64,000 nt of DNA from NCBI RefSeq assembly GCF_007859755.1, contig NZ_SJPF01000007.1, positions 21,691-85,690 on the forward strand. The letters are read 5' to 3'. Below the pieces are notes generated by a model, which saw only the letters and a program-made list of their open reading frames with translations, was not told the DNA's origin and ran no database searches. Made by a program: the position numbers and the translations under genes. Source of the stretch: Blastopirellula retiformator. GTDB lineage: Bacteria > Planctomycetota > Planctomycetia > Pirellulales > Pirellulaceae. Positions 26,118 through 42,569 of this stretch are shown here, in pieces; positions within the stretch are counted from its first letter, which is position 1; each line of letters starts with the position of its first letter.

Positions 26118-26780
26118 CTACGACAACGCTGACACCAACAGCTTCTCGGCGGCGTCCAAGCCGAGCGTGGTCCTTCGTCCGGCGACTTCGATCGTGATCA
26201 CTCCGGCTTCGGCGCGGTAGGCGACGATCTTACCTTCGCACCCGGGCGCGAGCGACTCTTCGGTCAGGTAACGCAGGAAGTCAGGCGACTGATCCATCAC
26301 CCGGTTTAAGCGAAACGGTTCTGCCGGATCCCATTTGGTCAGCTTCTTGGTATCGATGCTGACCATGCTGCCGTCAGCCCGCGGAATTGGATCGCCGTGC
26401 GGATCGGTCGCCGGATGGCCAAGATACTCGTCGATGCGATCGATCAGCAAGTCGCTGACGGCGTGCTCCATGTGCTCCGCCTCTTCGTGCACTTCGTCCC
26501 AGGTTAGATCGAGCGTGTGGACCAGAAAGACCTCGATCAAGCGATGGCGGCGCAAGACCCGCAGCGCAAGCGTCCGCCCCGACGGCGTCAGACTGACCCC
26601 TTCGTACTTCATGTACTCGGCCAGTCCCGCCTCGCTGAGCGTCTTCAGCATGCTGGTCACCGTGCCAGGCGAAACGGAGAGCGCCGTCGCCAATTCGCCG
26701 GTCGACGCCGCATCTTTATCGTCCCGGGCACAGACCTGGTAAATCGCTTTTACGTAATTTTCTATCGTCAGATTCTGCAC
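26118..26780 (-). CDS. DtxR/MntR-type metal-dependent transcriptional regulator
   Basis: 220 residues from the GTG at 26780 (VQNLTIENYVKAIYQV, the usual family opening); a longer frame upstream is unconserved. Winged HTH (TGELATALSVSPGTVTSML) is followed by the dimerisation region with metal ligands (EHMEHAVSDLLIDRID; HPATDPHGDPIP) and a FeoA/SH3-like C-terminal domain. Such proteins repress manganese or iron uptake genes when loaded with metal. Target genes are not evident next to it, although an iron-related cluster lies at 47-60 kb. Confidence 0.9.
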   Translation of the reverse strand: MQNLTIENYVKAIYQVCARDDKDAASTGELATALSVSPGTVTSMLKTLSEAGLAEYMKYEGVSLTPSGRTLALRVLRRHRLIEVFLVHTLDLTWDEVHEEAEHMEHAVSDLLIDRIDEYLGHPATDPHGDPIPRADGSMVSIDTKKLTKWDPAEPFRLNRVMDQSPDFLRYLTEESLAPGCEGKIVAYRAEAGVITIEVAGRRTTLGLDAAEKLLVSALS

Positions 26781-26892
26781 GCGGGTCTCCTGCGGATGGG
26801 GACCGCCAATTCTACGACTGAAAGGCCGCGGGAACAATCGACCTTTGGCGCGGTAGACTTGCAACTAACCCGTCTTGCTGAAACAACATGGG

Positions 26893-27050
26893 TTAGCAGT
26901 CCGTTGATTTTCTCGACGGACTGCGAGATCGCAGGAATGCGATCCCAAAATAGCGACGCAAGTCGTTATTTTGCGAGCCGCGAAGAGCTACGCTCTGAGC
27001 CTGGCGAGGTTGAAAAATGCCACGATGGCATTTTTCAACAGGCTGTTAGC
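26893..27050 (-). repeat. Multi-hairpin dispersed repeat, copy 3
   Basis: Full-length copy in the reverse orientation, between the divergent DtxR-type regulator and mch. It begins TTAGCAGTCCGTTGATTTTC and ends CAACAGGCTGTTAGC. It ends only 13 bp before the Shine-Dalgarno-like GGAG of mch, so it forms part of the mch leader. Confidence 0.9.
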
Positions 27051-27074
27051 AACTTTTCATTCGGAGCCCCTCTT

Positions 27075-28016
27075 TTGAACCTGAACCAACGCGCCTTTGA
27101 ACTCGCCCAGGCGATTGTCGATCAGCCTGAGCAATACCAGGCCGCCATTCTGACCGCCGAATGCGGCGTGCAGTTGATCGATGTCGGCGTCAATGCGCCC
27201 GGTGGACAAGAGGCGGGCCGCAAGCTGGCCGAGGTTTGCCTGGCGGGACTGGCCGACGTCAACTTCACGCTCGGCAGCCTGGAAGGGATTCCGCTGGATG
27301 TGCATGTCAAAACCGAGCAACCGGTCGTCGCCTGCATGGGTTCGCAATACGCCGGTTGGAAAATCTTGCACGGCGATTTCTTCGCGATGGCGTCGGGGCC
27401 GATGCGGGCCATCGCCGGCAAAGAGCCGCTAATCACCAAGCTCGACCTTGCCGAGTCGGCCGACGTGGCGGTTGGCGTGCTCGAAACGTCGCAGCTGCCC
27501 CCCGACGACGTTTGCCGCGAGATCGCCAAGCAATGCGGCGTCGAGCCAAGCCAATTGCGGCTGCTGGTCGCCCGCACCGCCAGCATCGCCGGTCATGTGC
27601 AGATCGTCGCGCGGAGCGTTGAAACGGCGCTGCACAAACTACACGAACTGAAGTTCGACCTGCGCAAGATCGTCAAGGCCGAAGGCTTCGCGCCGCTGCC
27701 GCCGATCGCCGCCAATGACGTGCAAGGGATCGGCCGCACCAACGACGCGATCCTCTATGGCGGGCAAGTAACGCTGTGGGTCGACGCCGACGACGAACAG
27801 ATCCTGGAAGCGGGACAGCAACTTCCCAGCAATAGCTCGCCGGCGTACGGCACGCCGTTCGAGAAAATCTTACGGGACGCCAACTTCGATTTCTATCAGA
27901 TCGATCCGATGCTCTTCAGCCCAGCGCAAGTGACCTTAATGAATGTGAACAATGAGCAATTGCACACGTTTGGGGAAACGTCGGAACCGCTGCTGAAAGA
28001 AAGCTTCGAGCTGTAG
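27075..28016 (+). CDS. mch: Methenyltetrahydromethanopterin cyclohydrolase
   Basis: 313 residues. Characteristic motifs include VGVNAPGGQEAGRKLAEVCL, ACMGSQYAGW, FFAMASGPMRA and GRTNDAILYGG. The enzyme interconverts methenyl- and formyl-H4MPT in the archaeal-type C1 pathway, which planctomycetes are known to share with methylotrophs. No ATG lies near the conserved start; TTG at 27075 is preceded by GGAG at 27063-27066 with an 8-base gap, so it is chosen. A longer open frame upstream only reads through the repeat. An ATP-grasp ligase gene lies 2.8 kb downstream; other pathway genes are not seen. Confidence 0.93.
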   Translation: MNLNQRAFELAQAIVDQPEQYQAAILTAECGVQLIDVGVNAPGGQEAGRKLAEVCLAGLADVNFTLGSLEGIPLDVHVKTEQPVVACMGSQYAGWKILHGDFFAMASGPMRAIAGKEPLITKLDLAESADVAVGVLETSQLPPDDVCREIAKQCGVEPSQLRLLVARTASIAGHVQIVARSVETALHKLHELKFDLRKIVKAEGFAPLPPIAANDVQGIGRTNDAILYGGQVTLWVDADDEQILEAGQQLPSNSSPAYGTPFEKILRDANFDFYQIDPMLFSPAQVTLMNVNNEQLHTFGETSEPLLKESFEL

Positions 28017-30854: not shown

Positions 30855-31763
30855 GTGCCCAAGACCCCTCTCCAGATTGGCCTGCTCGCCGCTTCCGATA
30901 GCTGGTACGCCCAGGATCTCGCCCGGGCGGCCGCCGCTTTTTCCAATCTTTCGGTCACGCCGGTCGACTTCCGCCGCCTGCAGGCTTCGCTAAGTGCGCA
31001 GCCCGGCTTTTGGTACGGCGACCAGCTAGACGCCCAGCAGCTACAGGCCCTGCTGGTTCGCACCATGCCGCTGGGCAGCTTAGAGCAGGTCATCTACCGC
31101 ATGAATTGGCTGGCCGAGTACCAGCAGCAGGGGGCGGTCGTGCTGAACGCCCCCCGCAGTCTCGAGATCGCGATCGACAAGTATCTGACCCTGTCGCGAT
31201 TGGCGGCCCGGCGGATCTTGGTTCCCGAGACTTATCTATGTGAAACGTGGGAAGACGCCCTGGCAGCGTACGAAGCGCTGGGGGGGGACGTCGTCGTCAA
31301 ACCGCTGTTTGGAGGCGAAGGCCGCGGCATTTTACGGGTCGAATCGCCCGACTTGGCCGAGCGGGTCTTCAAGACGTTGTCGCGGACCGACTCGGTGCTG
31401 TTCCTGCAGAAGTTCGTCCCGCATGACGGCTACGACATTCGGGTGCTGGTGATCGGCGGCAAAACGTGGGGAATGACCCGCCATAACGAGCACGATTGGC
31501 GGACCAACGTACAGCGGGGCGCCGCCAGTCGACCGCACACTCCCACGCCCCAGCAGTTGGAAATCGCCCTGGCGGCGGTCGACCGGCTGCAGTTGGACAT
31601 GGCGGGGGTCGACCTGCTGCCTGGCCGAGACGGCAACCTTTATCTGCTGGAGGTCAACGGCGTGCCGGGCTGGAAGGCGCTGGCCCGCACTTGCGAGATC
31701 GACATCGCCGCCGAAGTACTTTCCCACGTTCGGGCGGTTGTCGAGAGCCGCCGATCGGCCTAG
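30855..31763 (+). CDS. RimK-like ATP-grasp ligase
   Basis: 302 residues from GTG 30855. The ATP-grasp fold shows in VVVKPLFGGEGRGILRVES (glycine-rich nucleotide loop), the DIRVLVIGG strand, and the Mg site LLEVNGVPGWKAL. RimK-type ligases attach glutamate or other amino acids; homologues make the glutamyl tail of tetrahydromethanopterin in methanogens and methylotrophs. With mch 2.8 kb away, a role in H4MPT cofactor synthesis is a reasonable inference, but an unrelated ligase cannot be excluded. It is the first gene of the plus-strand series that continues into the Ole genes, 45 bp before oleC. Confidence 0.85.
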   Translation: MPKTPLQIGLLAASDSWYAQDLARAAAAFSNLSVTPVDFRRLQASLSAQPGFWYGDQLDAQQLQALLVRTMPLGSLEQVIYRMNWLAEYQQQGAVVLNAPRSLEIAIDKYLTLSRLAARRILVPETYLCETWEDALAAYEALGGDVVVKPLFGGEGRGILRVESPDLAERVFKTLSRTDSVLFLQKFVPHDGYDIRVLVIGGKTWGMTRHNEHDWRTNVQRGAASRPHTPTPQQLEIALAAVDRLQLDMAGVDLLPGRDGNLYLLEVNGVPGWKALARTCEIDIAAEVLSHVRAVVESRRSA

Positions 31764-31808: not shown

Positions 31809-33497
31809 GTGGCGACCGCCGCTTCGACCTCCACTAAGAATGTCGGCTCTCTCTTGGCGCAAGTCGCCCAAGAGCGCGGCGACGCCGTCGCCATCGCCAC
31901 GCCAGCTCGCCGCGGCAAGGATGGCCGGCGGGTCTATCAAACGATTACCTTCGCCGAGTTGGAAGCGGACAGCACGCGCCTGGCCGCTGGTCTGGCCGAG
32001 TTGGGCGTGACGCCCGGCACCCGGCTCGCGCTGCTGGTGAAACCGAGCATCGACTTCGTGTCGCTCGTCTTCGCCTTATTTAAGGTGGGCGCGGTTAGCG
32101 TCTTGATCGACCCCGGCATGGGGCGGAAGAATCTGCTGCGGTGCCTGGATCAGGTCGAGCCGGAAGGGTTTGTGGCGATCTCGATCGTGCAGGCGGTTCG
32201 CGTTCTGATGGGGCGGCGCTACGCCCAAGCGAAGAAGAACGTCACGGTCGGCCGCCGCTGGTTTTGGGGGGGCGCGACGATTGACGACTTGCGGAAAGCG
32301 GACGCCAGCGGCTTTCAGACGTTCGCCGCGGCCGATGACGACCCCGCGGCGATTATCTTCACCACCGGCAGTACCGGTCCGCCGAAAGGCGTGCTCTTTC
32401 GGCATGAAGGTTTTTACGAGCAGGTCCAGCAGATCCGCGATCGGTACGAGATCGCCCCCGGCGAAGTCGACTTGCCTGGCTTTCCGCTGTTCGGGCTGTT
32501 CAACAGCGCGATGGGCGTGACGTCGGTCATTCCGGAAATGGACGCCAGTCGTCCGGCGTCGGTCAATCCGCTCAACATCATCGAACCAATCCACGATTGG
32601 CAGATCTCGCAGTCGTTCGCCTCGCCGGCGGTTTGGAACAAGGTAAGCCTCTACTGCGAGCAGCATCAGATTCAACTGCCAACGCTCAAGCGGGTCTTGT
32701 CGGCCGGGGCGCCAGTTCCGCCCCATGTGTTGCGGCGGATGAAGAGCGTCATTCATCCCGAAGGCGACATCCACACGCCGTACGGCGCGACCGAGGCGCT
32801 GCCGATCGCGTCGATCGCCGCCAGCGAAGTTTTGGGCGGAACCGAACTCGAGTCGCAGCAAGGCGCCGGCACGTGCGTCGGTCGCCGCTTCAGCGGGATC
32901 CAGTGGCGGGTCATCCGCATCAGCGACGCGCCGATCGAAACGCTCGATCAATGTGAAGAAGTCGCCGCCGGGGAAATCGGCGAACTGATCGTCTCGGGGC
33001 CGGTCGTCACGCGGCGCTATTTCACCAGCGAAGAAGCGACGCGTCTGGCCAAAATCACCGATGGCGAGCGGATCTGGCACCGGATGGGAGACGTTGGTTA
33101 TCTCGATGCCGAAGACCGCTTTTGGTTCTGCGGCCGGAAGGCGCATCGCGTGCAAACGCCTGATGGCGACATGTACACGATTCCGTGCGAAGCGATCGCC
33201 AACAACCACGACGCGATCTATCGCAGTGCACTGGTGGGCGTAGGTGAGCCGGGCGAGCAGTTTCCGGTGATGATCGTCGAACCATGGCCCGATCGCTATC
33301 CCCAAACAAAGGAGGCGATCGACGCCCTGTTGGCGGAAGTCCGCGAGCGGTGTGCCGCGCATCCGCTGACCGAGACGATCTACGACTTCTTGCTGCATCC
33401 TTCGTTTCCGGTCGATATTCGCCACAATGCGAAGATTTTCCGGGAAAAGCTGGCGGTTTGGGCCGAGGAGCGACTCGACCTGCCGCACCAAGACTAA
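31809..33497 (+). CDS. oleC: OleC-like acyl-AMP ligase / beta-lactone synthetase
   Basis: 562 residues from GTG 31809. The adenylation fold has the P-loop IIFTTGSTGPPKGVLF and the TPYGATEALP motif, with a C-terminal FVVDIRHNAKIFR-like end (VDIRHNAKIFREKL). OleC activates a beta-hydroxy acid with ATP and cyclises it to a beta-lactone in head-to-head hydrocarbon synthesis. Identity as OleC rather than an ordinary fatty-acid ligase rests on overall resemblance and on OleD and OleA being in the same block. OleB is not fused or adjacent. Confidence 0.85.
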   Translation: MATAASTSTKNVGSLLAQVAQERGDAVAIATPARRGKDGRRVYQTITFAELEADSTRLAAGLAELGVTPGTRLALLVKPSIDFVSLVFALFKVGAVSVLIDPGMGRKNLLRCLDQVEPEGFVAISIVQAVRVLMGRRYAQAKKNVTVGRRWFWGGATIDDLRKADASGFQTFAAADDDPAAIIFTTGSTGPPKGVLFRHEGFYEQVQQIRDRYEIAPGEVDLPGFPLFGLFNSAMGVTSVIPEMDASRPASVNPLNIIEPIHDWQISQSFASPAVWNKVSLYCEQHQIQLPTLKRVLSAGAPVPPHVLRRMKSVIHPEGDIHTPYGATEALPIASIAASEVLGGTELESQQGAGTCVGRRFSGIQWRVIRISDAPIETLDQCEEVAAGEIGELIVSGPVVTRRYFTSEEATRLAKITDGERIWHRMGDVGYLDAEDRFWFCGRKAHRVQTPDGDMYTIPCEAIANNHDAIYRSALVGVGEPGEQFPVMIVEPWPDRYPQTKEAIDALLAEVRERCAAHPLTETIYDFLLHPSFPVDIRHNAKIFREKLAVWAEERLDLPHQD

Positions 33498-33532
33498 AAT
33501 AGAAGCGTTCCTCTGCTTGGAGATCCCGCCTG

Positions 33533-34543
33533 ATGCAACTGCGCTGCCCTCACTGTTCGACCGTGCTCGAAATCCAATCGCCTGCCGGTACGCAGGTGCA
33601 GTGCCCTACGTGCAGCGGCGTCTTTGTGGTCCCCGACATGGGCGCTACGACGCCTCCGCCGCCGCTTCCCAATGTATCGCAATCGCCGCAGCCCCCCAAT
33701 CTGTCGGCGCCGCAGTTGCAAACCCGGCCCAACGCCCCTGGGCGAAAGTCGCCGCCGCCGAAGAAGAGCAAGCCGGCCGCAGCGGGCACATCAGCCGGCG
33801 CAGCTGCGGAAGGCTCCGAAGGGGAAGACGAAGAAGTTTCGTTCTTCAACAAGCATCAGAAGCTGATCTTCAACATCGTCGCCGGCGGCGTCGGCGCGGT
33901 GGCGCTGTTCCTGGTCTTTGCGGTCGCCAAGGCGCTGCTGACCGGGGGCGGAGAAGACGCGCCGGTCGCAGAAGTTGCCAACGAAACCAACACCAACGTC
34001 GGCAACAAGATCCAGGAAATCATGGATCGAGCCGAGAACGACGACAGCTTCTATATCAACTGGTCCGACGCGTCGAAGAAGAGCAAGATCCTCGACGGCT
34101 TGAAGGTGAAGGTTCATCACGTCGATTGGGGCGAAGTCCGCGGCCACGACGAACAAGGAGAATTGCAAACCTCCGGACGCCCCTTCATGGTCGTCTATCT
34201 CGAGATCGGCAATCGCTCGGGCAAGCCGATTCACTTCAAGACATGGTACGGCACCGAGTTCAAATCGCCGGCCGGGTTCCGCACGGCGCAGCTGTCGGAT
34301 GAACAGCGAAACATCTACTATCCGACGCGGTTTGACGACATCGCCCGCCTGAAATGGAACACCCCGGAAAAAACGTTCGAGCCGAAAGAGGATGGAACCG
34401 ATTCGATCGTGTTTGACGTCGGCGAAGACTTCAATCCGAAGACGGTGCAAAATCTCTATCTCGACCTGCCGGGTCAGGCAATCGGCGAAGGAGGATCGTT
34501 TCGCTTCAAGATCCCCCGCTCGATGATCCAAGGTCTCGACTAG
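33533..34543 (+). CDS. MJ0042-type zinc-ribbon membrane protein
   Basis: 336 residues. Zinc ribbon Cys5, Cys8, Cys24, Cys27 (CPHC ... CPTC); a Pro-rich linker (PPPPLPNVSQSPQPPNLSAP) and an acidic/basic stretch; one membrane helix at about 110-133; and a soluble C-terminal beta-rich domain ending IPRSMIQGLD. This type is common in planctomycetes and of unknown function. Its place between oleC and oleD with short gaps (35 and 31 bp) is unusual and may mean it is co-expressed with the pathway or only co-transcribed. Confidence 0.75.
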   Translation: MQLRCPHCSTVLEIQSPAGTQVQCPTCSGVFVVPDMGATTPPPPLPNVSQSPQPPNLSAPQLQTRPNAPGRKSPPPKKSKPAAAGTSAGAAAEGSEGEDEEVSFFNKHQKLIFNIVAGGVGAVALFLVFAVAKALLTGGGEDAPVAEVANETNTNVGNKIQEIMDRAENDDSFYINWSDASKKSKILDGLKVKVHHVDWGEVRGHDEQGELQTSGRPFMVVYLEIGNRSGKPIHFKTWYGTEFKSPAGFRTAQLSDEQRNIYYPTRFDDIARLKWNTPEKTFEPKEDGTDSIVFDVGEDFNPKTVQNLYLDLPGQAIGEGGSFRFKIPRSMIQGLD

Positions 34544-34574
34544 CTCTTATTTTGGAAATGGAAAGGCGGTTCTG

Positions 34575-35561
34575 GTGCGCGCGCTCGTCACCGGTGGTGG
34601 AGGATTCTTAGGTCAATATATCGTCGAGCAGCTGCTCGCCCGCGGCGATCAGGTGCGCGTCCTCGGACGCCGCGACTATCCTGATCTCGTTGAGCTGGGG
34701 GTCGAGTGCGTCCGCGGCGATGTGGCCGACGCTAAGATCGTCTCGCAAGCCTGCGCCGGCATGGACATCGTCTATCACACCGCCGCGATCGCCGGTATCT
34801 GGGGACGCTGGGAAGATTTCTACCAGGCCAACGTCGTCGGTACCGAAAACATCATCGCCGCTTGCCACGAGCATGGCATTGGCAAACTTGTTTACACCAG
34901 CAGCCCCAGCGTCACCTTTGACGGCAGCGACCAGAACGGGATCGCCGAGACCGGGCAGTATCCAGACCATTACTTGGCCCATTACCCCCGCAGCAAAGCG
35001 ATCGCCGAGAAAATGGTGCTGAAGGCGAACGAGCCGGGCAAACTGTTGACCTGCGCCCTGCGGCCCCATCTGATTTGGGGCCCCCGCGATCAGCATCTGA
35101 TTCCGCGGCTGCTGGAGCGGGCGAAATCGGGCAAATTGCGGATTGTTGGAAATGGTCGGAATATGGTCGACATGATTTATGTCGAAAACGCCGCCATCGC
35201 CCATCTGCAAGCGGCCGACGCGCTGCGCGAGGGGGGGAAGGTTTGCGGAAAAGCGTACTACCTGAGCCAGGGAGAGCCGGTGATGTGTTGGGTTTGGATC
35301 AACGACCTGCTGAAATTGGCGGAAATTCCTCCCCTAACGCGGAAAATCTCGTATCGCGCCGCTTATGCGATCGGCTGGCTGATGGAATGGGGCTATCGAC
35401 TTTTGGGCAAATATCGCAGCGAACCCCGAATGACCCGCTTTTTGGCGGCTCAGCTGGCGACCAACCACTACTACAACATCGCCGCTGCCCGGCACGATTT
35501 CGGCTTTGAGCCGACAATTAACATCGAGGAAGGGATGCGCCGCCTGGCGAAAACCCTTTGA
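34575..35561 (+). CDS. oleD: OleD-like NAD(P)-dependent 2-alkyl-3-oxoacid reductase
   Basis: 328 residues from GTG 34575. Extended SDR: TGGGGFLG near residues 6-13, TSSPSV, and the catalytic YPRSK with Tyr137 and Lys141. The family is 3-beta-HSD-like; OleD reduces the beta-keto acid made by OleA to the beta-hydroxy acid that OleC then activates. The assignment leans on the neighbouring oleC and on oleA in the same block. A TM-like helix near the C-terminus (RAAYAIGWLMEWGY) is typical of this group. Confidence 0.85.
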   Translation: MRALVTGGGGFLGQYIVEQLLARGDQVRVLGRRDYPDLVELGVECVRGDVADAKIVSQACAGMDIVYHTAAIAGIWGRWEDFYQANVVGTENIIAACHEHGIGKLVYTSSPSVTFDGSDQNGIAETGQYPDHYLAHYPRSKAIAEKMVLKANEPGKLLTCALRPHLIWGPRDQHLIPRLLERAKSGKLRIVGNGRNMVDMIYVENAAIAHLQAADALREGGKVCGKAYYLSQGEPVMCWVWINDLLKLAEIPPLTRKISYRAAYAIGWLMEWGYRLLGKYRSEPRMTRFLAAQLATNHYYNIAAARHDFGFEPTINIEEGMRRLAKTL

Positions 35562-35590
35562 TCGACATCGCTCGATCTGTGGCGCATATC

Positions 35591-35619
35591 TTGTCAACGT
35601 GCAGGGGAATCGGTAGTTT
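35591..35619 (+). promoter_or_regulatory. Candidate promoter for the acyl-chain operon
   Basis: TTGTCA at 35591 and TAGTTT at 35614 with a 17-bp spacer, 34 bp before the ketosynthase start. The -10 match is weak. Confidence 0.3.
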
Positions 35620-35652
35620 GGACTGTTTCTCTGGACCCTTCGGTAGCAGTTC

Positions 35653-36906
<1,254 letters not shown>

Positions 36907-36931
36907 GCGGCAACGCAGGAGATACAACGCA

Positions 36932-37183
36932 GTGACGCCAGCGGAAATTCGTGAGGAAGTTCTAGACATCTTGCGCGACATCGCCCCGGATGACGACATT
37001 TCCGACATCGACGACGCGAAGCCGTTTCGCGAACAGCTCGAACTCGACAGCATGGACTTCCTCGACATCGTCATGGAACTCCGTAAGCGGCACCGCGTGC
37101 AGATTCCGGAAGAAGATTATCCGGAACTCGGTTCGATGGCGAGCACCGTCGCCTATCTCGAGCCCCGCATGAAAGACCTGTAA
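36932..37183 (+). CDS. Acyl carrier protein of the acyl-chain operon
   Basis: 83 residues from GTG 36932. Phosphopantetheine site LDSMDFLD with Ser40, flanked by acidic helices as usual. It follows the ketosynthase by 25 bp and would carry the growing chain. A second, different carrier protein is at 45991, so this one is likely dedicated to the operon. Confidence 0.92.
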   Translation: MTPAEIREEVLDILRDIAPDDDISDIDDAKPFREQLELDSMDFLDIVMELRKRHRVQIPEEDYPELGSMASTVAYLEPRMKDL

Positions 37184-37265
37184 TCAGGCTCATTCGGCAA
37201 GCGGCGTGCGAAAGCGCGCCGCTTCGCCTTCGCTAACAACGTTCGCTTTTCCCAGCTATTGTTCC

Positions 37266-38657
37266 ATGTACGACGCGATCATCATTGGCGCTGGGATGTC
37301 GGGGTTGTCGGCCGGAATTCGGCTCGCCTACTACGGCCAGAACGTTTGCATCCTCGAGCGCCACTACACCATCGGCGGGCTCAACTCCTTCTACCGCATG
37401 GCGGGACGCGACTTTGACGTCGGCCTGCACGCGGTGACCAACTACGCGCCCAAGGGAGACCGCCGCGGTCCGCTCGGCCGCCTCTTGCGGCAGCTGCGGT
37501 TCAAGTGGGAAGAGTTCGCCCTGTGCGAGCAGCGCGGTTCGTTGATCTCGTTCCCCGACGTCCAATTGGCGTTCGATAACGATATCGAACTGCTCAAGAG
37601 CGAAGTCGCGACCAAGTTCCCCGGCAAGGCCGACGCGTTTCAGCAGCTGCTCGACAACATCATCGATTACGACGACATCTCCGACGATAATTACGCCGGA
37701 TCGGCTCGCGAAATCTTGATGGAGACGCTCGGCGATCCGCTGTTGGTCGAGATGATCCTCTGCCCGCTGATGTGGTACGGCAATGCCCGTGAGCGGGACA
37801 TGGACTGGGGCCAGTTCTGCATCATGTTCCGCAGCATCTTTTTGGAAGGGTTCGCCCGGCCTTACAAGGGCGTCCGTCTGCTGCTGAAGAACCTGGTCCG
37901 CAAGTATCGCGAACTCGGGGGCGAACTTCGCCTGCGCAATGGCGTGCAGCGGATTGTGCATGAAGAGGGCAAAGCGGTCGGCGTCGTACTGGATAGCGGC
38001 GAAGAGTTGCAGGCCCGCAAGATCATCTCGTCGGCCGGTTGGTTCGAGACGATGCGGATGTGCGGGCAGCCAAAAGAGAAGCTGGAAGGCTCGCCCGGCG
38101 TGCTGAGCTTTATCGAAAGCATCTCGGTCCTGAACCAGCAGCCGAAAGACATCGGCTTCGAGCCGACGATCGTCTTCTACAACGACTCCGACAAGTTCCA
38201 CTGGGAGATGCCCAAAGATGAGATCTGCGATACGCGGACCGGCGTCATCTGCTCTCCCAACAACTTCCTCTACCCCGGCGATTCGCAACTGGACGAAGGG
38301 TTCATGCGGATTACGACGCTCGCCAATTTCGACCGCTGGATGACGATGTCGGACGAAGAATATCGCCTGGCGAAACTCAAATGGTACGACGCGGCGGTCG
38401 CCTCGGCGGTACGGTTTGTCCCCGACTTCCGCCGGCACATCGTGGCGACCGACATGTTTACGCCCAAGACGATCCATCGTTACACCTGGCATGACAATGG
38501 CGCGGTGTACGGAGCGCCCGACAAGCGATTGAGCGGCGAAACGCACCTGCAAGACCTTTACATCTGCGGGACAGACCAAGGTTTTGTCGGTATCATAGGT
38601 TCGATCGTCAGCGGCTTGTCGATCGCCAATCGGCACGTCTTGCAAGCGGCCAGCTGA
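37266..38657 (+). CDS. Phytoene-desaturase-like flavoprotein 1
   Basis: 463 residues from Met 37266 (MYDAIIIGAGMSGLSAG). FAD-binding dinucleotide fold at the N-terminus and the terminal motif DLYICGTDQGFVGIIGSIVSG of the CrtI/retinol saturase group. Family members desaturate, saturate or isomerise polyenes and fatty chains. It lies in the acyl-chain operon, suggesting that it acts on an ACP-bound or free acyl chain rather than on a carotenoid. No carotenoid synthesis gene such as crtB is nearby. A hairpin (AAGCGGCG ... CGCCGCTT) lies 40 bp upstream. Confidence 0.87.
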   Translation: MYDAIIIGAGMSGLSAGIRLAYYGQNVCILERHYTIGGLNSFYRMAGRDFDVGLHAVTNYAPKGDRRGPLGRLLRQLRFKWEEFALCEQRGSLISFPDVQLAFDNDIELLKSEVATKFPGKADAFQQLLDNIIDYDDISDDNYAGSAREILMETLGDPLLVEMILCPLMWYGNARERDMDWGQFCIMFRSIFLEGFARPYKGVRLLLKNLVRKYRELGGELRLRNGVQRIVHEEGKAVGVVLDSGEELQARKIISSAGWFETMRMCGQPKEKLEGSPGVLSFIESISVLNQQPKDIGFEPTIVFYNDSDKFHWEMPKDEICDTRTGVICSPNNFLYPGDSQLDEGFMRITTLANFDRWMTMSDEEYRLAKLKWYDAAVASAVRFVPDFRRHIVATDMFTPKTIHRYTWHDNGAVYGAPDKRLSGETHLQDLYICGTDQGFVGIIGSIVSGLSIANRHVLQAAS

Positions 38658-38739
38658 CGCATTTCGTCGCTGACCGCCAACCCGCGCGACGCGCCCCTTT
38701 TCACTTTCCCAAGCTACAGATTCAGATCGAGTTTCTCCC

Positions 38740-40191
38740 ATGGCCAAAGATTTTCTCGCCGGAGCGAAAGACTATTACGACGTCGTGGTGATCGGCAGCG
38801 GATTGGCCGGCATGACCGCCGCCAACACGTTAGCCCGCGCCGGTCGTTCGGTCCTGCTATGCGAACAGCATTACAAGCTGGGGGGGATGGCGACCTGGTT
38901 CAAGCGTCCCGGCGGGCACATCTTCGACATCTCGCTGCACGGCTTTCCGATCGGCATGATCAAGAGCTGCAAGCGCTACTGGACCAAGGAGATAGCCGAC
39001 TCGATCGTGCAGTTGAAGAACATCCGCTTCGACAACCCGATGTTCTCGCTCACCACCACCTTCAACCGTGATGACTTCACCCGACTGCTGATCGAGCAGT
39101 TTCAGGTTCCCGAAGAAACGGTCATCGCGTTTTTTGACGCGGCCCGGCAGATGAACTTCTATGACGATCAGCAGATCACCACGCGTGAGCTGTTCGATCG
39201 CTTCTTCCCGGGGCGAGAAGACGTCATCCGGCTGCTGATGGAGCCGATTACCTACGCCAACGGCTCGACCCTGGAAGATCCGGCGATCAGCTACGGCATC
39301 GTCTTCTCGAACTTCATGTCGAAGGGGGTGTTCACCTTCGAAGGCGGAACGGATCGCCTGATCCAGCTGATGGAAGCCGACATGAAGAAGAGCGGCGTCG
39401 ACATCCGCATCCGCTGCGACGTCGACAAGATCCTGGCCGAGAATGGTCGCGCGAACGGCGTGGTCGTCAACGGCCGCACCATCAAGGCGGGCTCGGTCAT
39501 CTCGAACTCGAACCTCCGCGGCACCATTTTGGAGCTGGTCGGCGAAGACAAGTTCGACAACAAGTTTGTCGACGAGGCGAAGGCGGTTCGCCTGAACAAC
39601 TCCAGCACCCAGGTCTACATGGCGCTGAAGCCGGACGACACCATTCCGGAAGAGACCGGCGATTTGCTCTTCAGCAGCACCGCCCCGGCGTTTCGTACGG
39701 ACTTGCTGCTGAGCCGCGACATCACCAGCCGAACCTACTCGTTCTACTATCCGCGGACGCGGCCCGAAGGTCGCCCGCGCTGCTTGATCGTCTCCAGCAC
39801 CAACGCTCGCTACGAAGACTGGGCGAACCTGCCGGAAGACGAATACGAAGCGAGCAAGCAAGACCTGGTCGAGACGACGCTCGACGCGATCGAGAAGTAC
39901 GTCCCCAACATCCGCGAGCGCATCGACCACGCCGAAGCGTCGACCCCGCGGACTTTCCAGCATTACACCAAGCACAATCTCGGCTCGAGCTTTGGCACCA
40001 AGTTTGAAGGCCTGGCCGTCAGCCGCGCCCTGCCCGAGCAACTGCCCGGCCTATACCACGCCGGCAGCGTCGGCATCATCATGTCAGGCTGGCTCGGTGC
40101 GATTAACTACGGCGTGATCGTCTCGAACGACGTCGACTCGTACCTGCTGAAGAACGCCGAGAAGAATCCTTTCGCCACTACCACGAAGTAA
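38740..40191 (+). CDS. Phytoene-desaturase-like flavoprotein 2
   Basis: 483 residues. FAD motif [17 protein letters not shown] and CrtI-type C-terminal signature [19 protein letters not shown]. It is clearly paralogous to flavoprotein 1 but diverged, so the two probably catalyse different steps. Such a pair in one fatty-acid-like operon is also a feature of loci proposed for ladderane lipids in anammox planctomycetes. The stop is 6 bp before the dehydratase. Confidence 0.87.
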
Positions 40192-40197
40192 GCCTCC

Positions 40198-40629
40198 ATG
40201 ACTCGCGAAGCCATTTACGCTGCGATCCCGCACCGCCCGCCGATGCTGTTGGTCGACGAGATCGTCAGCCAGACCGAAGAAACGATCGTCTGCCGCAAGA
40301 CCTTCACCGCCGACGAGTACTTCTTCCAGGGACACTACCCGGAGTTTCCGCTCGTCCCCGGCGTGATCCTGTGCGAAGCGACGATGCAGTGCGGCGCGGT
40401 GATGCTGTCGAAGTTCGCCGCTGAAGGCAAAGGAGTGCCGGTCGCGACGCGACTGAGCGACGTGAAGCTCAAAAAGATGATCCGCCCCGGCGACACGATC
40501 GAGATGGAAGTGAAGCTGGTCGAGCGAATGGCGGACGCCTTCTTCATGACCGGCAAAGCGACTTGCGACGGCAAGGTGGCGGTTCGCTTTGACTTCGCCT
40601 GTACGATGGCCCCCACGCCGGGAGAGTAA
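40198..40629 (+). CDS. FabZ/FabA-like 3-hydroxyacyl-ACP dehydratase
   Basis: 143 residues, hot-dog fold. [10 protein letters not shown] is the FabZ opening, and [20 protein letters not shown] contains the catalytic pair His46 and Glu60 at the normal 14-residue distance. It would dehydrate the beta-hydroxyacyl intermediate made after the ketosynthase and a ketoreductase. It ends 4 bp before the enoyl reductase. Confidence 0.9.
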
Positions 40630-40633
40630 CCGC

Positions 40634-41437
40634 GTGAGCGATTTCCTCAAGCTGTCAGGCAAAACGTTTGTCGTCACCGGCGTCGCCAATCGCAAGAGCA
40701 TCGCCTGGAAGATCGCGGAGATGCTCGAAGGGGAAGGCGCAAAGGTCGTCTACGTCGTCCGCAGCCAAGCCCGCAAAGAGAGCCTGACCAAACTGCTCTC
40801 AGGCGGCGAAGTCCACATCTGCGACGTCGAGCACGAAGAGGAAATCGCCGCCCTCCCCTCGAAGATTGCCGCCAACCATCAAGTGATCGACGGGCTGGTC
40901 CACTCGATCGCCTTCGCCGACTACAGCGAAGGGATGCGGCCGTTTCACGAAACGACCAAGAAGCAGTTTCTGCAGGCCGTCGACATCAGCTGCTTCTCGT
41001 TGGTCGCCCTGTCGAACGCTTTGAAGGAGCTGTTCGCCCCGAATGCGTCGGTGGTGACGATCTCGATTTCGACCACGCGGATGGCGAGCGAGAATTACGG
41101 CTTCATGGCGCCGATCAAAGCGGCCCTCGATTCGTCACTGGCCTTTCTGGCGAAGAGCTTCAGCCAGTTCTCGCAGGTTCGCTTCAACGCCGTTGGCCCG
41201 AGCTTACTGAAGACGTCAGCGTCGGCCGGCATTCCTGGCTACGTGGACGCTTATCTATTCGCCGAACAGGCGATCCCGCGGAAGCAGGCGCTGCAGACCG
41301 AAGAAGCGGCGAGCGTGGCGGTCTTTTTGCTCAGCCCGCGCAGTAGCGGCATTCAGGCGCAAAACCTGACCGTGGATGCCGGTATGTCAATCAACTACTT
41401 CGACCGCGACATTATTGAGCGGACGATGAACAAGTAG
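40634..41437 (+). CDS. FabI-like enoyl-ACP reductase
   Basis: 267 residues from GTG 40634. The FabI opening [18 protein letters not shown] is present, and Tyr155-x6-Lys162 (YGFMAPIK) matches the FabI active site. The second conserved Tyr of E. coli FabI (10 residues before) is Ile145 here, so substrate handling may differ. It closes the acyl-chain operon. Its 3' end overlaps the convergent oleA by 26 bp. Confidence 0.88.
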
Positions 41438-42569
41438 TCGCGTCGCTATCTTCGTTGTCTTGGCCCTGGACCGGATGCAGCACTTCGGCCGGCAGCTCGC
41501 CGGTTCCGCAGACGCGGGCCTCTTGCCAATCGACTCCCATCATCACGCAGTTGATGCCCGAGCCGATCCCCAGCATGGCGACGTTTTCGCCTTGCTTGAT
41601 CCGCCCGGTCTGGGCGCCAATCGCCATCGTCACCGGCAGCGCGGCCGAGCCGGTGTTGCCGAGCCACTGCACCGTGGCGAAGTCGTTGTCGACCGAGAGC
41701 CCCAACCGCTCCAGCACCAGTTTGCGATGGGTCAGACCGACCTGGTGACTGAAAGTCCGCTGAATCTCTTCGCCGCTCCAGCCTGACTTGCGAAGGAAGT
41801 CGTCGAACGTGGCGCCGCCAACTTCGATCCCTTCGACCATCAGCCGCTCTGAATCGGTCTGCATCAGCGGGCTGCCGACGCCGGTCTCGTCCGATCCGGC
41901 GATGCTGTGACACAGCTGATTATGCTGCGTATGGGCTCGCACCGCGGCGGCGTGCAGCAGGTTTTGCGTCTGGCTTAGCTCGCGATCACATAACAGCATC
42001 GCACAGCTGGCCGAACCGATGGTCAGCGACGCGACCGCCAGCTTGATCTGATTGCGGGTCAGGCTCTTGTCTTCGTTGAGGGTGCGGACCGTGTTGTCGA
42101 CCAGTTGCCGGCCATTTTCGGTTCCGACAACCAGCCCGGCCCGGATCTGCCCGAGCTCAATCATGCTGGCGATCTGCAAAGCGCCGCTCAACACGCCCAG
42201 ACAGGCGTTCGAGACGTCGTAGATCACGCAGTCTTGCCGCAGGCCCAGTTCGTGATGCACGCGACACGCGGTGGCAGGCTCCAGGTGGTCGCGACAGACC
42301 GAACCATGCACCAGCGCGCCGATCTCACCAACGTCGATGCCGGCCGCTTCGATCGCGTTGCGGCCACTTTGGATGCTGATCTCGCTTGGCATCGTCTCCG
42401 GCGACCAGAAGCGGCGCTCGCGAATGCCGGTCATCAGTTCCAAGCGGCCTGCCGGCAGCCGCAGGCGCTCGTACAGGGGCGCCAGCCGGGCTTCCAGCTG
42501 ATCGGAGGTGACCGTTTCGGCCGGCAATGCGTACCCGAACGACTCGAGACAGACGTTATGAAAATTCAT
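41412..42569 (-). CDS. oleA: OleA-like head-to-head acyl condensing enzyme (thiolase fold)
   Basis: 385 residues. Cys123 (SNACLGV), His275 (FSHQVGL) and Asn305 (WLGNTGSA) form the FabH-type triad. Glu97 (DHLEPATA) lies exactly 26 residues before the Cys, the spacing of the extra Glu that distinguishes OleA (Glu117/Cys143 in Xanthomonas) from FabH. OleA joins two fatty acyl thioesters through the alpha carbon of one and the carbonyl of the other. It is convergent with the acyl-chain operon, and oleC and oleD lie 8 kb upstream. A C-terminal Asp/Ser/Thr-rich tail is extra. Confidence 0.88.

What the first reader, a model, noticed from the sequence alone, without database searches (positions are those of the whole stretch)
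31809..42569. A dedicated acyl-chain operon with two desaturase-like flavoproteins embedded in an Ole hydrocarbon locus
Seen: oleC and oleD, then ketosynthase, acyl carrier protein, two CrtI/phytoene-desaturase-like proteins, FabZ-like and FabI-like genes on one strand, and oleA converging at the end. Known: OleA condenses two acyl thioesters; CrtI-like enzymes desaturate or isomerise polyenes; loci with FabF/FabZ/ACP plus phytoene-desaturase-like genes were proposed for ladderane lipids in anammox planctomycetes; some planctomycetes make highly unsaturated C31 hydrocarbons. Inference: this operon may make a polyunsaturated or otherwise modified acyl chain that feeds OleA. I do not know of a description of this pairing.
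Basis: partly seen in the sequence, partly recalled or inferred. Interest (0 to 1): 0.85.

Follow-up and report, generated by a model that had tools for sequence, protein, structure and literature searches.

The report
Alternative polyunsaturated-chain supply for hydrocarbon genes
In many planctomycete bacteria a small set of separate enzymes, including two unusual flavin proteins, appears to take the place of the giant polyunsaturated-fatty-acid synthase that otherwise feeds the genes for making long hydrocarbons.

Summary
In detail: oleC, oleD, ketosynthase (KS), ACP, two CrtI/CrtISO-like flavoproteins (FlA, FlB), FabZ and FabI-like genes on one strand, oleA convergent. KS-ACP-FlA-FlB recurs in 20 of 34 neighbourhoods of relatives. 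In 393 planctomycete genomes FlA and FlB occur in exactly the same 113, not adjacent in 42. All 113 have OleA; 63 more have OleA without FlA/FlB. Of those 63, 51 carry PUFA synthase PfaA over its curated cut-off, against 0 of 113 FlB genomes (at E<=1e-200: 61 of 63 against 4 of 113). On an RpoB tree the route label needs 10 changes, on OleA trees 2: OleA travels with its acyl source. So the operon most likely is a discrete stand-in for Pfa, supplying a polyunsaturated acyl-ACP (probably 16:4n-3, for C31:9) to OleA; FlA and FlB may replace the two FabA-like isomerase domains, which is inference. The anammox flavoprotein examined is distant (22-24% identity), not an orthologue. No chemistry was tested. 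A FASII-based PUFA route with phytoene-dehydrogenase-like enzymes was proposed in 2009 (Rattray); the alternation with Pfa did not turn up in nine library searches.

The parts
31809..33497 (+). OleC-like beta-lactone synthetase
   Evidence: NCBIfam NF006754 695.6 bits (cut-off 478); OleC models NF045786 596.6 and NF045785 529.8 bits, below their cut-offs of 900 and 850
33533..34543 (+). zinc-ribbon protein of unknown role, inserted between oleC and oleD
   Evidence: weak zinc-ribbon matches; seen in 5 of 34 neighbourhoods
34575..35561 (+). OleD-like 2-alkyl-3-oxoalkanoate reductase
   Evidence: NF042423 402.2 and NF042422 392.7 bits, best matches but below the cut-off of 580
35653..36906 (+). 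divergent FabF-type ketosynthase with Cys-His-His triad and invariant NSFGMLGIN near the C-terminus
   Evidence: TIGR03150 315.5 bits, below its cut-off of 493.75; alignment A3; conservation in 21 of 21
36932..37183 (+). acyl carrier protein of the operon
   Evidence: PF00550; DSM motif, Ser in 22 of 22
37266..38657 (+). flavoprotein A (FlA), CrtI/CrtISO superfamily; start moved from 37206 to the ATG at 37266
   Evidence: best NCBIfam TIGR02730 carotenoid isomerase 87.7 bits, far below the cut-off of 586.9; AlphaFold2 pLDDT 86, nearest 4rep, 4dgk
38740..40191 (+). flavoprotein B (FlB), CrtI/CrtISO superfamily
   Evidence: best NCBIfam TIGR02730 100.4 bits, far below cut-off; AlphaFold2 pLDDT 85, nearest 4rep
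40198..40629 (+). FabZ-type 3-hydroxyacyl-ACP dehydratase
   Evidence: NF000582 109.9 bits (cut-off 113); FabA TIGR01749 only 28 bits; His/Glu kept
40634..41437 (+). FabI-like enoyl-ACP reductase (open frame from 40589; start at 40634 is my choice)
   Evidence: PF13561; NF006369 174.3 bits, below cut-off of 370; YX6K kept
41412..42569 (-). OleA, convergent with the operon, in the FlB-route part of the OleA tree
   Evidence: NF006720 439.7 bits, cut-off 285; nearest solved structure by sequence 3fk5; tree with the window's own OleA

Best explanation
The operon is a set of discrete (type II) enzymes that builds a polyunsaturated acyl chain on its own ACP and hands it to OleA. It does the job that the giant type I synthase (PfaA, PfaBC) does in other OleA-bearing planctomycetes. 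Proposed course: KS extends the chain; a housekeeping FabG reduces (no ketoreductase is in the operon); FabZ makes trans-2-enoyl-ACP; then either the FabI-like enzyme reduces it or a flavoprotein moves or turns the double bond so that it survives. For 16:4n-3, chain arithmetic by hand asks for trans-2 to cis-3 isomerisation at C6 and C12, trans-2 to cis-2 at C8 and C14, and full reduction at C4, C10 and C16. That is two isomerase activities used in turn, and there are two flavoproteins in place of the two FabA-like domains of PfaBC. OleA joins two such chains; OleD, OleC and OleB finish to C31:9. Shown here: gene content, order, co-occurrence, alternation with Pfa, OleA lineage going with the route. 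Inferred: the product and the isomerase roles. My odds: dedicated acyl source for OleA 0.85; polyunsaturated product 0.7; isomerase roles 0.4.
For: FlB in 113 of 393 genomes, FlA in the same 113 although not adjacent in 42; all 113 have OleA. PfaA over cut-off in 51 of 63 OleA+/FlB- genomes and 0 of 113 FlB+. OleA trees: 27 of 28 Pfa-route OleAs lie on one side of a branch with no FlB-route OleA (100/100); route needs 2 changes against 29 or 28 for taxonomic family. RpoB tree of 60 chosen genomes: route needs 10 changes; well supported branches force at least 6 for the Pfa label. FlB within 20 kb of OleA in 34 of the 93 genomes with both places listed, also in families of other classes with a different gene order. 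Pfa locus L134: end of a PfaA-like protein, a protein with KS, AT and two FabA-like stretches, then oleA, hydrolase (oleB), oleC, oleD. In print: pfa mutations abolish C31:9 and OleA is proposed to take 16:4n-3 from the Pfa ACP domains (PMC6463001, passages); Geobacter bemidjiensis with tandem pfa-ole makes C31:9 (PMC4882568, passages; PMC3098273, passages); Desulfotalea psychrophila makes C31:8 and C31:9 with no known PUFA pathway and with phytoene-dehydrogenase-like FASII genes (PMC2649909, passages). A flavoprotein, FabX, stands in for FabA in Helicobacter (PMC8626469, passages).
Against: No lipid was measured in any FlB-route strain here. Four FlB+ genomes (G025, G264, G390, G394) have PfaA-like hits at E<=1e-200, all below the curated cut-off and on other contigs than OleA. 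Two of 63 OleA+/FlB- genomes (G041, G328) lack a strong PfaA hit, though in G328 a weaker one lies 13.9 kb from OleA. One Pfa-route OleA (G043, long branch) falls outside the Pfa clade, and one FlB-route OleA (G053) is its sister. An ancestor with both routes and later losses would explain the trees as well as exchange. FlB is not within 20 kb of OleA in 59 of 93 genomes. FlA and FlB resemble desaturases in fold (4rep, 4dgk); no carotenoid isomerase is among the 50 matches listed for each. In FabX the flavin dehydrogenates and the isomerisation is said to be spontaneous, so it is a precedent for the swap, not for flavin isomerase chemistry. The genome has three FA_desaturase-family (PF00487) homologues that could also introduce double bonds. 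Co-occurrence is clustered by descent, and the RpoB tree is one gene, quick mode.
Confidence: 0.7

Rival explanations
1. FlA and FlB are true CrtI-type desaturases: the Fab genes extend a chain and the flavoproteins oxidise it, as proposed for Desulfotalea and Kuenenia by Rattray et al. The product still feeds OleA.
For: Nearest solved folds are carotenoid desaturases 4rep and 4dgk, with 5mog also listed. The proposal is in print, with isotope data taken to mean that monounsaturated fatty acids are precursors of the C31 hydrocarbons in D. psychrophila (PMC2649909, passages).
Against: Best NCBIfam match for both is carotenoid isomerase TIGR02730, though far below cut-off. Desaturating a saturated chain is the harder task, as the 2009 authors note. 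An isomerase scheme explains why there are two and why they alternate with a synthase bearing two FabA-like stretches.
Confidence: 0.2
2. The operon makes a non-PUFA chain (cyclic, branched or conjugated) that OleA turns into a different hydrocarbon or ketone.
For: Divergent KS with an unusual C-terminal motif; anammox loci with KS, FabZ, ACP and a flavoprotein are proposed for ladderanes (PMC4790861, passages).
Against: Alternation with Pfa while each OleA lineage stays with its route points to an equivalent product; the anammox flavoprotein examined is not an orthologue.
Confidence: 0.1
3. The operon serves membrane lipids and its link with ole is only shared regulation or chance.
For: FlB lies further than 20 kb from OleA, or on another contig, in 59 of the 93 genomes with both places listed.
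Against: 113 of 113 FlB+ genomes keep OleA; order-mates G152, G358, G031 and G392 lack OleA, FlA and FlB together.
Confidence: 0.05

Closest known systems
Pfa-type PUFA synthase next to ole genes (secondary lipid synthases of Shulse and Allen; Geobacter bemidjiensis, Shewanella)
   Same: Feeds polyunsaturated acyl chains to OleA; in sister planctomycetes it lies beside the ole genes where this operon lies here.
   Different: Pfa is a multidomain type I system with FabA-like domains; here each activity is a separate protein, no FabA-like domain is in the operon and two flavoproteins are added.
FASII clusters with phytoene-dehydrogenase-like genes of Kuenenia and Desulfotalea psychrophila (Rattray 2009)
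   Same: FabF, FabZ, ACP and CrtI-like flavoproteins together; D. psychrophila makes C31:8 and C31:9 without a known PUFA pathway.
   Different: The anammox loci seen here have two KS genes side by side, a further 486-residue protein after the flavoprotein (radical SAM in the published Kuenenia table), no OleA at E<=1e-60 in the families concerned among the 393 genomes, and a flavoprotein 22-24% identical to FlA and FlB, about as far as FlA is from FlB. Desulfotalea could not be compared.
OleABCD head-to-head hydrocarbon pathway
   Same: OleA, OleC and OleD in the window, an OleB-like hydrolase elsewhere in the genome.
   Different: OleA lies apart from the Pfa-route OleA clade; the OleB-like gene is unlinked.
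FabX of Helicobacter pylori
   Same: A flavoprotein that supplies cis-3-enoyl-ACP in place of FabA.
   Different: Other fold (TIM barrel with FMN and 4Fe-4S); its flavin dehydrogenates, isomerisation is said to be spontaneous.
Carotenoid isomerase CrtISO / desaturase CrtI
   Same: Superfamily and FAD fold.
   Different: Scores far below family cut-offs; genomic partners are acyl-chain genes.

Membership tests
OleABCD pathway | OleA over its curated cut-off with Cys/His/Asn site | tested here: met
   439.7 bits against 285; site kept in 8 of 8
OleABCD pathway | OleC and OleD over OleC/OleD-specific cut-offs | tested here: inconclusive
   Best matches, but 596.6 of 900 and 402.2 of 580 bits
OleABCD pathway | OleB present in the genome | tested here: met
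   Homologue of the hydrolase beside oleA in L134 at C2:633775-634629, 43% identity, E 1.4e-67; taken as OleB by position in L134
Pfa PUFA synthase | PfaA-type multidomain protein over TIGR02813 cut-off | tested here: not met
   Window genome's best hit E 2.0e-109, 366 bits against 1010.1
Pfa PUFA synthase | FabA-like dehydratase/isomerase domains | tested here: not met
   Only a FabZ-type protein in the operon; FabA 28 bits
Pfa PUFA synthase | makes a polyunsaturated chain used by OleA | not testable with these tools
   needs lipid analysis; indirect support
Anammox/Desulfotalea FASII-flavoprotein clusters | orthologous flavoprotein | tested here: not met
   Six anammox rows of one flavoprotein type form their own clade, on FlB's side of the midpoint-rooted tree with long branches, 22.2% and 24.4% mean identity to FlA and FlB; the second Kuenenia flavoprotein and Desulfotalea not tested
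CrtI/CrtISO carotenoid enzymes | score over family cut-off | tested here: not met
   87.7 and 100.4 bits against 586.9 for TIGR02730
CrtI/CrtISO carotenoid enzymes | same fold | tested here: met
   Foldseek 4rep E 1.6e-24 (FlA) and 2.5e-21 (FlB)

The most novel reading that the evidence does not exclude
This is a discrete, type II polyunsaturated-fatty-acid synthase in which two flavoproteins of the carotenoid isomerase/desaturase superfamily act as redox-neutral acyl-ACP double-bond isomerases, one trans-2 to cis-3 and one trans-2 to cis-2. It is functionally interchangeable with Pfa: the two routes have replaced each other (or been sorted by loss) some six to ten times in one phylum, each time together with a matching OleA.
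Probability: 0.38. Interest if true: 0.92.

Novelty: new variant of a known kind. Interest (0 to 1): 0.8.

Why it matters
Some C31:9 producers have no Pfa genes, and how they make the chain has been open since at least 2009. This operon is a specific, small and expressible candidate answer. It also suggests a new enzyme role (flavin acyl-ACP isomerase), would give a route to omega-3 chains with separate proteins instead of megasynthases, and offers a comparison for the still unsolved ladderane flavoproteins.

Tried and rejected
Ladderane homology: genomes taken as anammox were found by a Kuenenia-type FabZ (33 of 294 genomes match at E<=1e-30, 19 of them at 64% identity or more), and seven stretches fetched (one was only 3 kb). 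In the six full ones the ACP-FabZ-KS-KS-flavoprotein order fits the published Kuenenia locus. Their flavoprotein is not orthologous to FlA or FlB, so membership is rejected; the second Kuenenia flavoprotein was not looked for. Carotenoid biosynthesis: rejected on family scores and partners. Spread outside the phylum: the one scan of named genomes kept 80 of at least 581 relatives; by title 77 are planctomycetes. Three (L232, L253, L271) have another or no phylum in the title and were not verified; five genomes were checked for OleA (those of L253, L271, L201, L246, L199) and all five have it over the cut-off. Desulfotalea and Geobacter could not be reached. Promoter/terminator scan: nothing above shuffles. 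The ATP-grasp gene upstream of oleC looks like C1 metabolism (MptN/RimK; mch lies nearby) and was left out.

Dropped or missing rows: G041 and G088 are not in the OleA trees because I did not have their OleA place. The trees hold 74 OleAs (with two FabH) and 75 (window's own added); two of them (G018, G027) come from the relatives, the rest from the 176 OleA+ genomes. The RpoB tree holds 60 genomes of my choice, all among the 393. FlB of L033 was dropped for a stop codon. G024 and G035, with FlB in pieces, were not fetched, so 34 of the 36 relatives with FlB were. A third CrtI-like paralogue of the genome was meant for the tree but did not pass its filters.
Full report
WHAT IS THERE. On the + strand lie OleC (31809-33497), a zinc-ribbon protein (33533-34543), OleD (34575-35561), a divergent FabF-type ketosynthase (35653-36906), an ACP (36932-37183), two CrtI/CrtISO-like flavoproteins FlA (37266-38657) and FlB (38740-40191), FabZ (40198-40629) and a FabI-like protein (about 40634-41437); OleA (41412-42569) is convergent on the - strand. 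An OleB-like hydrolase is elsewhere in the same genome. Active-site residues are kept in the sequences aligned. The KS carries an invariant NSFGMLGIN (21 of 21) where canonical FabF has, from memory, NSFGFGGTN. OleC and OleD are best matches to OleC/OleD models but below those models' strict cut-offs.

CONSERVATION. Of 40 genomes, the window's own and relatives up to order level, 37 have an FlB-type match. In the 34 neighbourhoods fetched, hits to KS, ACP, FlA and FlB follow each other in 20, OleD directly precedes KS in 17, OleC is present in 10 and OleA in 7. In 20 further FlB neighbourhoods from other families of the order, class and phylum, the KS-ACP-FlA-FlB run is present in 10 and at least one ole gene in 11; in some the order differs (OleA first, or OleC and OleD after FabI), so the clustering was rebuilt or kept through rearrangement. 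Named genomes with the run include records titled Blastopirellula, Bythopirellula, Botrimarina, Rhodopirellula, Pirellula and Gimesia, several of them MAGs (80 of at least 581 relatives were kept).

CO-OCCURRENCE. The same 393 genomes of the phylum were searched four times (completeness filter 90%). FlB: 113 (every genome's best hit is at E 4.8e-147 or better although the threshold was 1e-60). FlA: the same 113, no exception; the two genes start more than 3.5 kb apart or lie on different contigs in 42 of these, some of them fragmented assemblies. OleA: 176, including all 113 (113/0/63/217). Order-mates G152, G358, G031 and G392 lack FlA, FlB and OleA together at these thresholds.

ALTERNATION WITH PFA. 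Of the 63 OleA+ genomes without FlB, 51 have PfaA over the TIGR02813 cut-off; none of the 113 FlB+ genomes does. At E<=1e-200 the figures are 61 of 63 and 4 of 113 (G025, G264, G390, G394, not on OleA's contig); at the loose E<=1e-60, which also catches other type I ketosynthases, 63 of 63 and 52 of 113. Nine further genomes at E<=1e-200 have neither OleA nor FlB. In 23 of the 57 OleA+/FlB- genomes with both places listed the best PfaA hit lies within 25 kb of OleA. Locus L134 shows the plan: a KR/dehydratase stretch near the end of the locus, a 2225-residue protein with KS, acyltransferase and two FabA-like stretches, then oleA, a hydrolase taken as oleB, oleC and oleD. In 12 of 20 OleA-centred FlB-negative loci a KS-like hit lies about 6 kb upstream of OleA on the same strand.

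OLEA FOLLOWS THE ROUTE. In a tree of 74 OleAs (46 FlB route, 28 Pfa route) 27 of the 28 Pfa-route OleAs form one clade (100/100) without any FlB-route OleA; the route label needs 2 changes, the taxonomic family 29. With the window's own OleA added the figures are 2 and 28 and the window's OleA lies with its genus-mates among FlB-route rows. The one outlier is G043, on a long branch. On an RpoB tree of 60 chosen genomes (37 FlB, 20 Pfa, 3 neither) the route label needs 10 changes, and well supported branches alone force at least 6 for the Pfa label. Families f20 and f90 contain both routes, each with the matching OleA. This is the strongest argument: whether by exchange or by sorting of two ancestral routes, acyl source and OleA stayed together, so they work together and the two sources look equivalent in use. 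The RpoB tree is a single gene in quick mode.

ANAMMOX. In six loci taken as anammox the flavoprotein beside KS and FabZ has mean identities of 22.2% to FlA and 24.4% to FlB, against 22.8% between FlA and FlB; it forms its own clade on FlB's side of the midpoint-rooted tree, on a long branch. So it is a third member of the superfamily, not an orthologue. Only one of the two Kuenenia-type flavoproteins was examined.

MECHANISM. In Shewanella, pfa mutations abolish C31:9, and OleA is proposed to take 16:4n-3 from the Pfa ACP domains (PMC6463001, passages). Geobacter bemidjiensis carries pfa and ole in tandem and makes C31:9 (PMC4882568, passages; PMC3098273, passages). If this operon replaces Pfa, it must retain cis double bonds every third carbon. 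Chain arithmetic by hand for 16:4 (4,7,10,13) asks for a trans-2 to cis-3 shift at C6 and C12, a trans-2 to cis-2 change at C8 and C14, and reduction at C4, C10 and C16. The Pfa locus has two FabA-like stretches; the operon has none, but two flavoproteins. Their best NCBIfam match is carotenoid isomerase, far below cut-off, and their models (pLDDT 85 and 86) are nearest to carotenoid desaturases. A flavoprotein in FabA's place is known in Helicobacter FabX, and FabA can replace it; but there the flavin dehydrogenates and the isomerisation is said to be spontaneous (PMC8626469, passages). Redox-neutral flavin isomerisation by CrtISO and type 2 IPP isomerase is recalled, not looked up. The steps of this paragraph as applied to the operon are inference.

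PRIOR ART. Rattray et al. 2009 (PMC2649909; part 1 of 7 of the text and passages read) proposed a FASII-based anaerobic PUFA route with phytoene-dehydrogenase-like enzymes for Kuenenia and Desulfotalea psychrophila, the latter making C31:8 and C31:9, and cite such hydrocarbons in planctomycetes. Javidpour et al. 2016 (PMC4790861, passages) found that two Kuenenia flavoproteins do not make lycopene. Shulse and Allen 2011 linked pfa-like clusters with ole genes. I recall, without having read it (not held), that Sukovich et al. 2010 reported C31:9 in a Planctomyces strain. The nine searches of an open-licence library showed me, in the titles and abstract openings listed, no description of this operon's pairing with ole or of its alternation with Pfa; papers under other licences were not searched.

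VERDICT. Real, conserved, and most likely a discrete replacement for the PUFA synthase that feeds OleA. Chemistry is untested.

Noticed in passing
G076, G118, G128, G147, G290 (f52) and G233, G310 (f78); e.g. G128:C1:1692336-1698692: Genomes that look like anammox bacteria (Kuenenia-like FabZ, or the same family) carry large PfaA-like type I synthases (best E 7e-234 to 4e-249) but no OleA, FlA or FlB at E<=1e-60; a possible lead for ladderane chain synthesis.
   Followed up: no
window 30855-31763 +: A RimK/MptN-like ATP-grasp gene lies directly upstream of oleC in 9 of the 10 fetched neighbourhoods that hold OleC; methenyl-H4MPT cyclohydrolase lies nearby (26517-28016), so probably C1 metabolism.
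   Followed up: partly
L201, L202: MAGs titled Candidatus Kuenenia stuttgartiensis carry an FlB 79% identical to a Planctomycetaceae-type FlB; the first also has two OleAs over the cut-off. The titles are probably wrong.
   Followed up: partly
L271: A 1.6 Mb MAG titled Dehalococcoidia has OleA-KS-ACP-FlA-FlB-FabZ-FabI in a row: mislabelled, or transfer outside the phylum.
   Followed up: partly
G000:C3:166835-167680 and C3:189114-191105: A third CrtI/CrtISO-like flavoprotein lies about 21 kb from a type I ketosynthase hit in the window's genome.
   Followed up: no
window 33533-34543 +: Zinc-ribbon protein wedged between oleC and oleD; a match was seen in 5 of 34 neighbourhoods, the three same-genus genomes among them.
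   Followed up: no
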